Shown here one piece after another: positions 8,347-63,511 of a stretch of DNA of 64,000 nucleotides. The stretch covers positions 1 to 64,000 of the forward strand of contig NZ_JAMBLS010000005.1 in NCBI RefSeq assembly GCF_023336905.1, in the 5' to 3' direction. The translations under genes and the position numbers were made by a program. The notes beneath the pieces are model-generated. The model did not search any database, was not told the DNA's origin, and saw only the letters and a program-made list of their open reading frames with translations. This stretch comes from Bacteroides sp. ET71 (GTDB taxonomy: Bacteria > Bacteroidota > Bacteroidia > Bacteroidales > Bacteroidaceae). Positions within the stretch are counted from its first letter, which is position 1; every line of letters begins with the position of its first letter.

Positions 8347-8450
8347 CGGAGCGCGGTCGGGTTGCCTCCTGCGGGCAAGAGGCGTGGCTGTTGCGGACGC
8401 GGGCGGTGCTTCTTGCGGACACGGGCGGCAGCCCTCCGGCACGCTTGCTT
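8347..8450 (+). repeat. 22-bp-period GC-rich array between GH43 and GH5
   Basis: The 496-bp gap between the divergent GH43 and GH5 genes holds about five degenerate units in a 22-bp register. The two clearest cores are TTGCGGACGCGGGCGG at 8391 and TTGCGGACACGGGCGG at 8413. Weaker units fit the register at 8347, 8369 and 8435. The core resembles the arrays at 24.5, 31.8, 51.5 and 63.5 kb. Apart from the two promoters I see nothing else in this gap. Confidence 0.7.
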
Positions 8451-8594
8451 TTTCCTGCTATTACCCTTCGCCCGACCAGGCCGCAGGCAGGTCAAAAGGT
8501 TTGTTTCTTATCAGCAAAGTTTGTTTCCTGACATAATTCGGCCTTCTTCCGAAAATACTTCCCCCGCGCCACTTCTTTCTCGGAAGAATCCATA

Positions 8595-8602
8595 TACCTT
8601 TG
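8595..8602 (+). promoter_or_regulatory. -7 promoter element for the GH5 gene
   Basis: TACCTTTG matches TAnnTTTG, 89 bp before the GH5 start. This implies a leader of roughly 80 nucleotides. Confidence 0.6.
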
Positions 8603-8691
8603 TCTGTCGGAGAGCCCGGGGACGTGGCGGTTTCGTCCGTCCTGCCGACAGGCAGAGTACATATTTAATCACTCAATAATTTAATATCAGT

Positions 8692-9981
8692 ATGGAGAAT
8701 ACATTTCGTTGGCGTTGGCGTGCAGTAGCCTCGCTTTGTTTGATGTTCATGTTTGGTCTGGTCTCTTGCAATGACGATGAAGACAATCCCGGCACGGGCG
8801 GCATCCCCGGCGGACAAGTACCGCAAGAAGTACGCACGATAGCCGACCGCCTCGGCTTGGGCTGGAATCTTGGAAATTCACTCGATGCACATGTAAACGG
8901 TGTCTCTGACGAGACGGCTTGGAACAATGCTCCTGCCTCGCAGGCTCTTTTCGACCGTGTGGCCGCGGCAGGCTTCACGTCGGTGCGCATCCCCGTCACG
9001 TGGATGGGGCACATTGGCGACGCTCCTGATTATAAGATAGAAGACGCTTGGATGGACCGCGTGGCCGAAGTCGTAGGGTATGCGGAAAATGCCGGGCTCA
9101 ACGTGATTATCAACATCCACCACGATGGCTACAGCGACAGAACCAGCTCGGACTACAACCCTGCCATGTGGCTGGACGTCCGAGAAGCTGCCCGCAACGA
9201 GTCGGCACGTGCCGAAATCAACGCCCGCTTCCGGGCCGTCTGGTCGCAGATAGCCACGCGCTTCCAGGACAAAGGCGAATTCCTCATCTTCGAAAGCTTT
9301 AACGAAGTGCACGACGGCGACTGGGGACAGGGCGGAAATCGCTTGGACGGTGGCGCCCAATACGGTGTCATCAACGAATGGAACCAAATCTTCGTGGACG
9401 CCGTGCGTGCCACAGGCGGACAGAACACGAACCGCTACCTCGGCGTGCCGGGATATGCCACCGATGCAGACCTCACCATCGACTACATGGAACTTCCCGA
9501 AGACCCCACCCCCAACCGCTTGCTGGTGAGCGTACACTTCTATGAACCCACCGAGTTCACCCTGACCGCCGAATACTCCGAATGGGGACACACCGCCGCT
9601 TCCGGTACTTACGTGGAGGGTGGCAACGAAGACAATGTACAGGCCGTGTTCGGCGCGCTGAAGACCCGTTTCGTGGACAACGGCATCCCCGTCTACTTCG
9701 GAGAGATGGGTTGCGTGCGCCACGAGAGCGAACGCAGCGAACAGTTCCGCCGCTACTACTTCGAATACGTCTTCAAGGCTGCCCACGACTACGGCATCGT
9801 GCCTTTCTGCTGGGATAACGGCTATGCCGGCGCCGGCAAGGAACAGTCGGGCCTCTTCGACCGTGCTACGGGTAACTTCCTGAACGATGCCGAGACGATG
9901 GTCAACGCCATGAAGAAGGCCGTCTTCACGACCGATACCTCCTACACCCTGCAAAGCGTCTATGACGGTGCGCCCGAATAA
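8692..9981 (+). CDS. GH5 endo-beta-glucanase / xyloglucanase, lipoprotein
   Basis: A 429-residue protein with a lipoprotein signal (MFGLVSCNDDEDN) followed by a Gly/Pro linker, then a GH5 barrel. GLGWNLGNSLDAH, SVRIPVTWMG and VIINIHHDGY are the early strands. E205 in ESFNEV is the acid/base and E338 in VYFGEMG the nucleophile. The pattern looks closest to subfamily GH5_4, which includes endo-xyloglucanases, but the subfamily is an inference. As a surface or periplasm-facing lipoprotein it would cut the glucan backbone for the exo-acting enzymes around it. The gene is monocistronic, with its own -7 box and a strong terminator at 10011-10042. Confidence 0.9.
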   Translation: MENTFRWRWRAVASLCLMFMFGLVSCNDDEDNPGTGGIPGGQVPQEVRTIADRLGLGWNLGNSLDAHVNGVSDETAWNNAPASQALFDRVAAAGFTSVRIPVTWMGHIGDAPDYKIEDAWMDRVAEVVGYAENAGLNVIINIHHDGYSDRTSSDYNPAMWLDVREAARNESARAEINARFRAVWSQIATRFQDKGEFLIFESFNEVHDGDWGQGGNRLDGGAQYGVINEWNQIFVDAVRATGGQNTNRYLGVPGYATDADLTIDYMELPEDPTPNRLLVSVHFYEPTEFTLTAEYSEWGHTAASGTYVEGGNEDNVQAVFGALKTRFVDNGIPVYFGEMGCVRHESERSEQFRRYYFEYVFKAAHDYGIVPFCWDNGYAGAGKEQSGLFDRATGNFLNDAETMVNAMKKAVFTTDTSYTLQSVYDGAPE

Positions 9982-10010
9982 AGAGACAAGTTTTCATAGG
10001 TAAAAAGGTG

Positions 10011-10042
10011 AAAAAAGAGCTATCTCAGCATAGCTCTTTTTT
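10011..10042 (+). terminator. Rho-independent terminator after GH5
   Basis: A perfect 13-bp stem, AAAAAAGAGCTAT (10011-10023) and ATAGCTCTTTTTT (10030-10042), with a six-base loop, ends in a T-tract. Confidence 0.92.
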
Positions 10043-10171
10043 ATCCGTAGGCCAAGCAGCAGGAGCAGGGGCAACAAATGATGCCCTGAAAGAAAACGTA
10101 CGATACCCGGATGAATCAAAAGCCACCCTTTTTCTCGACAGGAAGAAGGGGCTGGGGTGGAGAAAAATGCT

Positions 10172-10179
10172 TATTTTTG
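10172..10179 (+). promoter_or_regulatory. -7 promoter element for the first GH2 gene
   Basis: TATTTTTG lies in the context AATGCTTATTTTTG (10166-10179), 61 bp before the GH2 start. The same 14-base context recurs before the second GH31 gene (16558-16571). This suggests that the two are controlled together, probably by the HTCS encoded between them. Confidence 0.55.
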
Positions 10180-10240
10180 CGTAAAATGCAAGCATCGTCT
10201 TCGCCCTACCCCGATTTGTTCATCTTAAAAAACAACCACC

Positions 10241-62075: not shown

Positions 62076-62079
62076 AGCA

Positions 62080-62574
62080 CTATTTTTTTAATGTGCAAGC
62101 AAAATCTATCATTTTTATTGCAGTGACGGCACATTCGTCTCCTTTATTGCCCAAACGGCCTCCTGCACGGTCTTCTGCCTGCTGCATGTTGTTGGTGGTG
62201 ATGAGGCCGTAGATGACGGGGACGTTGCCCGTGGCATTCAGTTGGGCGATGCCTTGCGTGGCACCCATGCACACGTAGTCGAAGTGGGGGGTGTCGCCAC
62301 GCACCACGCATCCCAGGGCGATGACGGCATCGACGTCGGTCTGCTTAATCATTTGGGCGGCGCCGAAGGTCAGCTCGAAGCTGCCGGGCACGGTGCGGAC
62401 GAGGATGTTTTCTTCACGCGCACCGTGTTTTTTCAGCGTGTCGAGCGCACCACGCAGCAGGGCGCCGGTGATGTTGTAGTTCCATTCGGATACGACGATG
62501 CCGAACTTCATGCCCGATGCGTCGGGGACGGACTGGAAGTCGTATTCTGACAGGTTGTGGTATGCTGTTGCCAT
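62080..62574 (-). CDS. ribH: 6,7-dimethyl-8-ribityllumazine synthase
   Basis: 164 residues with all lumazine synthase landmarks: [54 protein letters not shown] (catalytic His) and [22 protein letters not shown]. It condenses the ribityl-amino pyrimidine with dihydroxybutanone phosphate in riboflavin synthesis, forming a 60- or 10-mer shell. It begins 9 bp after the TPR gene stop, so the two form an operon. No FMN riboswitch is seen. Confidence 0.98.
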
Positions 62575-62582
62575 CGTCGCGC

Positions 62583-63266
62583 TTATTTCTTCAGCAGTTT
62601 GGCCTGTTCGATGTACTTGTCGATGTCCATGGCCGTGTAGGAGGCGAAGTATTTGTCCTTGATGGTGGTGTACGCCTGGATGGCTTCGTCAAACTTGCCT
62701 TGCTTCACCAGGATTTCGCCGGCTTGTTTCAGGAAGATGGGGCTGAGTGTGTTGTTGTCGGCCTGTGCGGCAGCTTCCTGCAAGGTAGCGGCAGCCTTGT
62801 CCAACTGTCCCAACTGTGCGTAGCAGTTGCCTATGGTGCCCTTGATGGCGGGTGCCACCATCTGGTCGTTGCCGTCGAACTGGTTCAGTGCCTCGATGGC
62901 CTGTTCGTTCTGTCCCATTTTGGCGTAGCAGATGCCCATGTAGGCTTGTGCCAGGTTGGCAGCCTTGGTACCGCTAAATTCGTCGGCCACCTTGGCGAAG
63001 CCTTCGTAGCCGATGCTGTCGCCGTTCAGTGCCTGCTCGAACTGGCCGGCCTCGAAGTATTCCTGTCCTTTGAACAGGGCGGCCTGTGCCTTTTCCTCGC
63101 GCGGGGCGGCGTAGAGGTGTTTGTACATCGACACGCCGGCCACGATGACGATGACGGCCACTACGGCGCCGATGATGGTTTTCTTGTTTTTGATGAGAAA
63201 TGCCTCAGACTGTGTCAATGCTTCTTCCACGTTGAGGGCTTCGTTGGTCTTTTTTTGTTCAGCCAT
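62583..63266 (-). CDS. Membrane-anchored TPR protein (YfgM-like)
   Basis: 227 residues: a short cytoplasmic start ([20 protein letters not shown]), one membrane helix (about 31-48, [17 protein letters not shown]), then TPR repeats ([72 protein letters not shown]). The layout resembles E. coli YfgM, a SecYEG-associated periplasmic TPR protein. Its function here is unproven. It is the first gene of the unit with ribH. Confidence 0.9.
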
Positions 63267-63319
63267 TGTTATGTATTCTTTTTGTTATTATTCTTTTTTG
63301 TACATTGGGTTTCGACCCG

Positions 63320-63327
63320 CAAAATTA
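63320..63327 (-). promoter_or_regulatory. -7 promoter element for the TPR-ribH unit
   Basis: CAAAATTA on the + strand reads TAATTTTG on the minus strand, 53 bp before the TPR start. Confidence 0.6.
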
Positions 63328-63402
63328 GTTCTTTTCTCAGTACGAGCGAAATTTGGGGGCATCTTTTTTCGGTCATCGGATAGAAAACAGCGAAATTCTT
63401 CC

Positions 63403-63410
63403 TACTTTTG
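63403..63410 (+). promoter_or_regulatory. -7 promoter element upstream of recF
   Basis: TACTTTTG matches TAnnTTTG, 156 bp before the recF start. If used, the GC-rich array at 63446-63511 lies in the recF leader. Confidence 0.5.
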
Positions 63411-63445
63411 CGCTTTAGAAAGGGGGGAAACTGTTGCCGGGCCGT

Positions 63446-63511
63446 TGCGCGTGGCGGCCGTGCTCCGTCCGCACACGGGCTGCGGCGCTTCCGCACAGGG
63501 GGCGGCGCAGG
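63446..63511 (+). repeat. 22-bp-period GC-rich array before recF
   Basis: Units at 63446 (TGCGCGTGGCGGCC), 63468 (TCCGCACACGGGCTGC) and 63490 (TCCGCACAGGGGGCGG) are 22 bp apart. Their core matches the arrays at 31.8 and 51.5 kb. Confidence 0.75.

What the first reader, a model, noticed from the sequence alone, without database searches (positions are those of the whole stretch)
8347..63511. A dispersed intergenic family of 22-bp-period GC-rich tandem arrays
Six gaps (8.35-8.45, 24.53-24.63, 31.82-31.90, 41.90-41.97, 51.47-51.54 and 63.45-63.51 kb) carry 3-5 head-to-tail units with a core near TTCCGGACACGGGCC. The step is 22 bp in five of them and 20-24 bp in the sixth. In this window all copies read on the + strand and always lie upstream of a + strand gene (GH5, GH95, menA, the 42.0-kb membrane protein, blaI-like, recF), never reversed before a minus-strand gene. 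The period is not a multiple of three, so it is not coding. A 22-bp step is close to two helical turns, so units would sit on one face of the DNA. I know of no named family with this form. It may be a phased protein-binding array, a nucleoid or segregation signal, or a leader RNA element.
Basis: seen in the sequence. Interest (0 to 1): 0.8.

Follow-up and report, generated by a model that had tools for sequence, protein, structure and literature searches.

The report
Fixed-number 22-bp intergenic site arrays
This gut bacterium carries many short intergenic arrays, mostly of three DNA sites spaced exactly 22 bases apart, and another Bacteroides species has the same layout with four sites of a quite different sequence, which suggests landing pads for a DNA-organising protein that has not been identified.

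Summary
The 22-bp arrays are real and genome-wide; the orientation rule is local. In 856 kb of this Bacteroides genome 204 units (shuffles 8-12) lie in 84 of 416 gaps on a rigid lattice: ++ and -- steps 22 bp (88 of 90), +- 20 and -+ 24 (24 of 27), so inverted units keep register. Units run 56 with and 56 against the genes. Arrays hold mostly three units (38-44 of 66) with nothing in the next cell. Neighbouring units are only moderately more alike than units of different arrays. Another Bacteroides, G020, has the same lattice with another sequence and four units in 43-44 of 50 arrays. The unit is lineage-restricted, yet 22 bp is the commonest intergenic repeat period in 12 sampled genomes (91 of 188 arrays, 76 of them from three genomes). 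Against a sister genome, informative columns are conserved more than degenerate ones, and length changes in array gaps are multiples of 22 (6 of 6). No Y1 transposase, conserved ends or RNA covariation; promoter association vanished against random placement. Best reading: site clusters for an unidentified oligomeric DNA-binding protein. A REP-like dispersed repeat remains possible.

The parts
8364..8429 (+). array of three A-type units (25.8, 21.4, 26.5 bits), step 22, in a divergent gap between a GH43 gene (-) and a GH5 gene (+)
19590..19611 (-). solitary inverted unit (22.9 bits) upstream of a + strand gene
24524..24589 (+). array of three units (16.4, 15.8, 18.9 bits), step 22, in a tandem gap between a GH3 gene and a GH95 gene
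31814..31879 (+). array of three units (19.3, 21.7, 24.2 bits), step 22, in a divergent gap between a HAD-hydrolase gene (-) and a UbiA-family (menA-like) gene (+); the array lies between the HAD gene's start and its TAnnTTTG motif (31956-31963, - strand); the + strand motif is at 31985-31992
   Evidence: the -7 motif itself is recalled
36507..36528 (-). weak solitary unit (15.7 bits), doubtful
41915..41936 (+). first unit of the 41.9-kb array (22.9 bits)
41935..41956 (-). second unit of the 41.9-kb array, inverted in register (22.0 bits; +- step 20)
51385..51466 (+). B-type 22-bp array (GTCCAAGATGCTTGGACACCCT, 3.7 copies) that runs in register into the A-type units
51468..51533 (+). array of three A-type units (16.3, 17.6, 29.9 bits), step 22, in a divergent gap between a hemerythrin-domain gene (-) and a Penicillinase_R (BlaI-like) gene (+)
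63438..63459 (-). weak inverted lattice cell (14.9 bits) before the recF array (-+ step 24)
63462..63505 (+). two A-type units (20.9, 22.5 bits), step 22, between a TAnnTTTG motif (63403-63410) and the recF-like gene: here the array lies downstream of the motif
   Evidence: the -7 motif itself is recalled

Best explanation
Each array is a cluster of a preferred number of binding sites (mostly three in this lineage, nearly always four in G020) for a sequence-specific, oligomeric DNA-binding protein of architectural (nucleoid-like) type. Each 22-bp unit is one roughly dyad-related site for a dimer; the dimers sit side by side two helical turns apart, so a site can face either way but cannot shift by a base. 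SHOWN by computation: the lattice with inverted units in register, the preferred number with sharp edges, intergenic position without gene orientation in G000, conservation of the informative columns, arrays kept in place in the orthologous gaps tested, and replacement of the unit sequence between species with the 22-bp geometry kept. INFERRED: that a protein binds; that it is oligomeric with as many dimers as there are sites; that its role is chromosome organisation (about one array per 10-13 kb of sampled DNA) rather than control of particular genes; that its specificity co-evolves with the sites. The protein was not found.
For: Lattice: G000 ++ 54 of 55 and -- 34 of 35 at 22, -+ 9 of 11 at 24, +- 15 of 16 at 20; G020 all four orientations at 22 (44 of 47, 41 of 42, 26 of 29, 18 of 19). 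Number: G020 four units in 43-44 of 50 arrays, G000 three in 38-44 of 66, at four thresholds; in modal-size arrays mean cell score 18.5 to 20.7 bits inside and -16 to -20 in the next cell outside. Sister genome G041: array presence agrees in 23 of 23 array gaps and 87 of 87 others among 110 orthologous gaps. Leave-one-out column identity 0.926 in high-information and 0.819 in low-information columns, p = 2.7e-6, 71 units. Non-zero length differences in array gaps are all multiples of 22 (6 of 6 among 24 gaps). Dyad: complementarity peaks at one axis (0.433 against 0.25-0.36 at 22 other axis positions, 90 units) without covariation. Units of 16 bits or more: 155 in the sampled gaps, 23 in 672 kb of coding DNA. 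Density: 66 arrays in 856 kb, 50 in 480 kb.
Against: No protein is identified. Position relative to the TAnnTTTG motif is what random placement gives (46 observed, 45.5 expected of 55 in G000; 42 and 40.3 of 46 in G020), so no regulatory role is shown. Neighbouring units of the same orientation are more alike than units of different arrays (0.634 against 0.541 in G000, 0.629 against 0.594 in G020), so some local duplication has happened. Arrays diverge faster between sister genomes (0.862) than the rest of their gaps (0.905) and other gaps (0.915). Array positions are not shared between G000 and G020 (2 of 32 orthologous gaps have both, Fisher p = 0.62; small sample). In G020 whole arrays resemble each other slightly more than order-shuffled ones (0.588 against 0.579, sd 0.0011; in G000 0.529 against 0.527, sd 0.0015), so some have spread by copying. 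Outside the 110 gaps the sister genomes do differ in arrays. The dyad is weak in G000. At the looser 11-bit cut coding DNA holds 207 hits. High-information columns are mostly C or G, so a mutation bias could add to the conservation contrast. Only two lineages were analysed in depth.
Confidence: 0.4

Rival explanations
1. A dispersed, lineage-specific extragenic repeat of REP/BIME kind: the arrays are non-coding copies spread by an unknown transposase or recombinase and kept as neutral or mildly useful intergenic filler. They also act as recombination points.
For: High copy number, intergenic, both orientations; unit restricted to two sister genomes among 80 searched (72 matches each, one weak match in each of two others, none in 76). 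No shared positions with G020. Slight whole-array similarity in G020. The most similar pair of G000 (95% over 66 bp) has unrelated flanks on both sides and lies 3.9 kb apart as direct repeats; the next pair of G000 (82%) and the best of G020 (81%) are direct repeats 4.9 and 4.6 kb apart, with similarity running on for about 20 bp on one side (0.70 and 0.60). In the sister genome the first pair is a single array and the 3,852 bp between is absent. G041 has a three-cell array near an lrp-type gene where G000 has none and the DNA does not align.
Against: No Y1 (RAYT) transposase match in G000 (0 matches, genome 99.58% complete). No strongly conserved end sequence outside the arrays. All 8 orientation patterns among three-unit arrays of G000, 11 of 16 among four-unit arrays of G020. 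No array gained or lost in the 110 orthologous gaps tested. Informative columns conserved after placement. Arrays are rare in low-GC3, probably acquired, DNA (3 of 66 gaps against 15, 22 and 21 of 66).
Confidence: 0.29
2. A minisatellite: slipped-strand duplication with a favoured 22-bp step makes tandem arrays, and template switching between half-units inverts single units in place. No function.
For: 22 bp is the favoured period for many unrelated unit sequences (91 of 188 intergenic arrays in 12 genomes). Unit gain and loss in steps of 22 between sister genomes, also in gaps without A-type arrays (14 of 27 non-zero differences). Same-orientation neighbours are somewhat more alike than units elsewhere. 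At one locus (C8 near 82970) the middle unit is inverted in register between sister genomes (17 of 22 bases agree in unit reading).
Against: Unit number is narrow with sharp edges, above all in G020; the excess likeness of neighbours is moderate; column conservation follows information content. No inversion among 60 cells of the 18 array gaps of equal length, so inversion is rare. It may well be right for the homogeneous B, D and E types.
Confidence: 0.16
3. Operator clusters of a classical regulator with an octameric wrap, for instance of the Lrp/AsnC family (four dimers on a disc).
For: Works alike: Lrp dimers bind imperfect inverted repeats in clusters with two- or three-turn spacing and oligomers wrap DNA (passages of PMC2995911). 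Four sites of 22 bp would match four dimers. Lrp genes are present in all ten genomes searched. In G041 a three-cell array lies about 0.5 kb from an lrp-type frame.
Against: Lrp number is the same (2-3) with and without abundant arrays. Within 1.5 kb of the lrp matches of G000 (3) and G020 (2) there is no array of two or more units, only single weak hits in G000. Lrp sites have AT-rich centres, these are GC-rich. No promoter association.
Confidence: 0.08
4. Leader-RNA or terminator hairpins.
For: Units have some dyad symmetry and several B and D type consensus units fold better than shuffles.
Against: Pair complementarity equals or falls below the expectation from column frequencies. Both orientations equally common against genes in G000. 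Mean folding z of doubled consensus units -0.25 and -0.33 over 47 lag-22 arrays of all types. No Rfam match over the window's arrays.
Confidence: 0.03

Closest known systems
BrickBuilt (23-nt minisatellite inside a MITE, Porphyromonas gingivalis; PMC4596501: abstract, section 5 and part 1 of 2 of section 7 read)
   Same: Order Bacteroidales (placement recalled); intergenic; tandem unit of about two helical turns; several sites per genome; limited host range. The paper also mentions 22- and 41-nt tandem repeats in strain W83.
   Different: BrickBuilt has leader and tail segments with terminal inverted repeats (both intact in 4 of 19 copies) and 1 to 22.8 units. Here no strongly conserved flank was found, the unit number is narrow, and units occur inverted in register.
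REP / BIME with RAYT (passages of PMC2817692 and PMC3733652)
   Same: More than 100 copies, extragenic, imperfect palindromes, regular spacing, both orientations; species-specific sequence (this last point recalled).
   Different: No Y1 transposase in G000, no GTAG or CGTC tag in the unit consensus, one 22-bp lattice with a preferred number of sites.
Lrp/AsnC octamers and RemA rings, DNA-wrapping regulators (passages of PMC2995911, and PMC8481266)
   Same: Clustered, weakly conserved sites; oligomer geometry could set site number and spacing.
   Different: No promoter association, GC-rich centres, species-to-species replacement of the unit.
TnsB and MuA end sites of Tn7 and Mu (recalled, not tested against sequence)
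   Same: 22-bp recognition units; four overlapping ones in the right end of Tn7.
   Different: Those belong to transposon ends; here mixed orientations and no transposon ends seen.

Membership tests
REP/BIME with RAYT | Y1 (RAYT) transposase in the genome | tested here: not met
   PF01797: 0 matches in G000
REP/BIME with RAYT | GTAG or CGTC tag at one end of the palindrome | tested here: not met
   unit consensus GCCTCTTCCGGACAAGAGCCGC (G000) and GGCGGGCACAGGTGTGCCCCCC (G020) lack it; tag as described in PMC3733652
REP/BIME with RAYT | high-copy, extragenic, imperfect palindromes | tested here: met
   204 units in 84 of 416 gaps; 155 intergenic against 23 intragenic units of 16 bits or more; dyad peak
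BrickBuilt MITE | leader, tail and terminal inverted repeats | tested here: not met
   information falls to mostly under 0.25 bits per column outside the arrays, with a short G-rich stretch of up to 0.47 beside G020 arrays (110 and 92 outward flanks)
Minisatellite (VNTR) | neighbouring units clearly more alike than units elsewhere | tested here: inconclusive
   same-orientation neighbours 0.634 against 0.541 (G000), 0.629 against 0.594 (G020): a moderate and a small excess
Minisatellite (VNTR) | length change in whole units | tested here: met
   6 of 6 non-zero differences in 24 array gaps are multiples of 22
Lrp/AsnC operator cluster | two- or three-turn spacing of imperfect inverted repeats | tested here: met
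   22-bp lattice; weak dyad
Lrp/AsnC operator cluster | AT-rich site centre | tested here: not met
   centres CCGGAC and AGGT in the consensus
Lrp/AsnC operator cluster | bound by an Lrp-family protein | not testable with these tools
   no binding data; no array within 1.5 kb of the five lrp matches of G000 and G020
Structured RNA element | compensatory base changes in the stem | tested here: not met
   observed complementarity equals or falls below expected over 202 and 191 units

The most novel reading that the evidence does not exclude
Bacteroides species carry a class of DNA anchor sites in which only geometry is conserved: three or four dyad sites, exactly 22 bp apart and in either orientation, in roughly one gap in five, with the sequence of the site wholly replaced from one lineage to another. 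This implies a fast co-evolving oligomeric architectural protein whose stoichiometry can be read off the DNA as the number of sites per array, a chromosome-organising system without a counterpart that I know of.
Probability: 0.28. Interest if true: 0.88.

Novelty: new variant of a known kind. Interest (0 to 1): 0.68.

Why it matters
A rigid lattice with a preferred number of sites, kept while the sequence changes between species, is not what slippage, MITEs or REP elements are known to give. If a protein binds these arrays it would be an unrecognised organiser of Bacteroides chromosomes, and the number of sites would predict its oligomeric state. If no protein binds, the arrays show an unknown repeat process with a 22-bp step. 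Between the two sister genomes 20 of 33 non-zero length differences among 110 orthologous gaps are multiples of 22, so 22-bp steps also dominate intergenic length change there.

Tried and rejected
Promoter association: first suggested by densities of the -7 motif TAnnTTTG (a motif recalled, from no call) on the two sides of arrays, then withdrawn, because such motifs lie near gene starts and random placement of the arrays gives the same count. Divergent gaps hold arrays more often than convergent ones (21 of 67 against 4 of 46 in G000, 16 of 41 against 3 of 31 in G020; Fisher p = 0.005 and 0.007), but divergent gaps are longer on average, so I do not build on it.

In-register inversion between sister genomes: I first read it at two loci from unit calls. 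A cell-by-cell check found none among 60 cells of the 18 array gaps of equal length, and upheld one locus (C8 near 82970) outside that set. The case at C3 sample 180431 is withdrawn. This and the moderate likeness of neighbouring units made me lower the best explanation from 0.42 to 0.40, the novel case from 0.30 to 0.28, and raise the first two rivals slightly.

RAYT: no match in G000. Lrp autoregulation: no array near the lrp matches of G000 and G020. RNA hairpins: no covariation. Shared array positions between G000 and G020: not seen. Foreign origin of the D unit: its two-unit pattern (up to one mismatch) occurs in none of the 79 other genomes searched. Orientation against local GC skew: + units 72 in negative and 31 in positive skew, - units 44 and 31, not pursued on a draft genome.

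Literature: ten searches; searches returned no paper, and the listings of the others showed no such family in Bacteroides. The library holds open-licence papers only. BldC (PMC5859096) was seen in a listing only; of PMC5771137 I saw passages.

Limits: genes were called with a home-made Markov caller. G000 is a draft of 189 contigs. The match counts are probably lower bounds (at most 65 candidate regions scored per genome, stricter filters). The period census is uneven: 155 of its 188 arrays come from G000, G020 and G041. The other-family controls are small (40, 40 and 80 kb). The orthologous gaps were those whose two flanks matched closely, so rearranged gaps are left out (110 of 390 own gaps). 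Rows dropped: one search was given 32 of the 36 references listed; four were left out by hand without a recorded rule.
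Full report
WHAT WAS CHECKED. The window is contig C5, bases 1-64000, of a 3.63-Mb draft genome in 189 contigs. An exact two-unit pattern hit two contigs of one chicken-gut MAG, Candidatus Bacteroides merdipullorum, in the genome collection (the tool notes that records of the window's own or a very near genome may be left out). Its genome (G041) aligns to the window's at 91-96% over 3-kb loci; the taxonomy places it in Bacteroides. 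The six arrays are there. They belong to a genome-wide set: autocorrelation in 206 gaps has sharp peaks at 22, 44 and 66 (z 20.5, 13.4, 7.2), and 53 lag-22 segments were found against 1.0 in shuffles.

THE LATTICE. A 22-column matrix (consensus GCCTCTTCCGGACAAGAGCCGC, 19.9 bits) finds 204 units of 11 bits or more in 84 of 416 gaps over 856 kb, against 9, 8 and 12 in three shuffles. Steps between neighbouring units depend on orientation: ++ 22 (54 of 55), -- 22 (34 of 35), -+ 24 (9 of 11), +- 20 (15 of 16). These are the steps expected if every site keeps one axis 22 bp from the next and may face either way. The irregular array at 41.9 kb is such a +- pair. At 16 bits or more there are 155 units in the sampled gaps and 23 in 672 kb of coding DNA; at the looser 11 bits coding DNA has 207.

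PREFERRED NUMBER. Arrays of two or more units number 66; three units is the mode (38-44 of 66 at thresholds 3, 5, 7 and 9 bits). In three-unit arrays the mean cell score is 18.5, 19.8 and 19.6 bits inside and -18.6 and -16.2 in the cells just outside. Neighbouring units are 0.599 identical (same orientation 0.634, opposite 0.497), units of different arrays 0.541. The narrow number and sharp edges speak against simple slippage; the moderate excess between neighbours shows that some local duplication has happened.

OTHER SPECIES. G020, a Bacteroides of 59% GC in its first sample, has the same lattice with another unit (GGCGGGCACAGGTGTGCCCCCC): 191 units in 52 of 270 gaps of 480 kb (shuffles 1, 7, 6), steps of 22 in 129 of 137 neighbouring pairs, and four units in 43-44 of 50 arrays. 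There neighbours and strangers are nearly equally alike (0.618 against 0.594). A 66-bp model of the window-type array matches G000 and G063 (72 each; G063 shares contig numbers and places with G041, so I take it for the same genome), one weak match each in G002 and G086, none in the other 76 of 80. Across 12 genomes 22 is the commonest intergenic repeat period (91 of 188 arrays of period 9-60, 76 of the 91 from G000, G020 and G041), also in low-GC congeners though in small numbers (G003 3 of 3, G021 2 of 4, G017 1 of 2, G022 1 of 2), but not in G018 (1 of 9) or G032 of another family (0 of 1). Lag-22 autocorrelation is strong in G020, G011 and G007, weak in G016, marginal or absent in G018, G003, G021, G017, G022 and G032, and absent in G026 and G031 of other families. 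So the period is widespread in the genus, while the unit is not.

SISTER-GENOME COMPARISON. Among 110 orthologous gaps with G041, arrays are present in both (23) or neither (87) (one search counts 24 array gaps by a looser rule). Length differences in the 24 array gaps are zero in 18 and multiples of 22 in the other 6; in the other 86 gaps 14 of 27 non-zero differences are multiples of 22. In the 18 array gaps of equal length no cell of 60 is more alike when inverted; one locus outside that set (C8 near 82970) has its middle unit inverted in register. Arrays are less conserved overall (0.862) than the rest of their gaps (0.905) and other gaps (0.915), but identity follows information content: 0.926 in high-information and 0.819 in low-information columns, with the scored column left out of the selection, p = 2.7e-6. 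That pattern is expected of binding sites: free columns drift, informative ones hold. Outside the 110 gaps the genomes differ: see below, and a three-cell array near an lrp-type gene of G041 has no counterpart in G000, where the DNA does not align.

WHAT IT IS NOT. No strongly conserved flanks, so no MITE of BrickBuilt type. No Y1 transposase match in the genome. No covariation and no Rfam match besides two tRNAs in the window, so an RNA element is unlikely. The promoter association that I first saw is explained by random placement (46 against 45.5 expected of 55; 42 against 40.3 of 46), so no regulatory role is shown. No Lrp link in G000 or G020.

RECOMBINATION. The two most similar arrays of G000 (95% over 66 bp, C3 sample positions 91350 and 95269, i.e. 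contig positions about 141350 and 145269) flank 3,852 bp with two genes without a Pfam match; the sister genome has one array there and lacks the segment. The next G000 pair and the best G020 pair are also direct repeats 4.9 and 4.6 kb apart. Arrays can therefore serve as crossover points. In G020 whole arrays resemble each other slightly more than order-shuffled ones, so some copying has happened. This is the main support for the REP-like rival.

MECHANISM. Shown: rigid two-turn spacing, orientation freedom, lineage-specific preferred site number, column conservation, intergenic placement, arrays kept in the orthologous gaps tested, rarity in low-GC3 DNA (3 of 66 gaps against 15, 22 and 21 of 66). 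Inferred: a symmetric oligomer occupies all sites of an array at once, and its number of dimers sets three or four sites. With 66 arrays in 856 kb and 50 in 480 kb, about one per 10-13 kb, and no promoter preference, an architectural role is more likely than gene control. I put this at 0.40; a REP-like dispersed repeat follows at 0.29.

Noticed in passing
window 357-446: A 23-bp tandem array of a palindromic unit (GCTACACTCCAGGGTAGCAACGA, 3.9 copies) in the gap 218-538, near-22 period but another sequence.
   Followed up: no
window 49845-49952: Two 7-bp arrays (ATGGTTA and ATTAACC units) of opposite reading in and at the edge of the gap 49630-49949 between convergent genes.
   Followed up: no
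window 47253-47311 and 36402-36447: 24-bp tandem repeats (2.5 and 1.9 copies) in the gaps before the genes at 47380 and 36752.
   Followed up: no
L045:11350-15334 (G000 C3 about 141350-145334): A 3.9-kb segment with two genes without Pfam match, flanked by 95% identical direct arrays; the sister genome G041 has a single array and no segment.
   Followed up: partly
L052 (G016, before the menA-like gene): By eye, an 11-bp-period array (ACCGAA/TTCGGT half-sites, both orientations) in the corresponding gap of another Bacteroides, half the 22-bp step.
   Followed up: no
L032-L040 and L172-L181 (G000 C1 and C4): 22-bp arrays of other sequences (e.g. ATATAACAGCCTGTTTTATCCT, GCGACCCGACGCAGTTAAAAAC, TATTATACTGTTGTGGGAACAG). 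Gaps without A-type arrays often differ between sister genomes by multiples of 22; these were not matched to the arrays one by one.
   Followed up: partly
L264:765-919 and L261:2294-2428: Long 22-bp arrays (lag-22 scores 93 and 71) near an lrp-type gene in G000 and G041, not of the A type.
   Followed up: no
L247:825-890: Three-cell A-type array (+ - +, 14.9, 16.9 and 21.6 bits) in G041 about 0.5 kb from an lrp-type frame; no counterpart in the G000 locus L252.
   Followed up: partly
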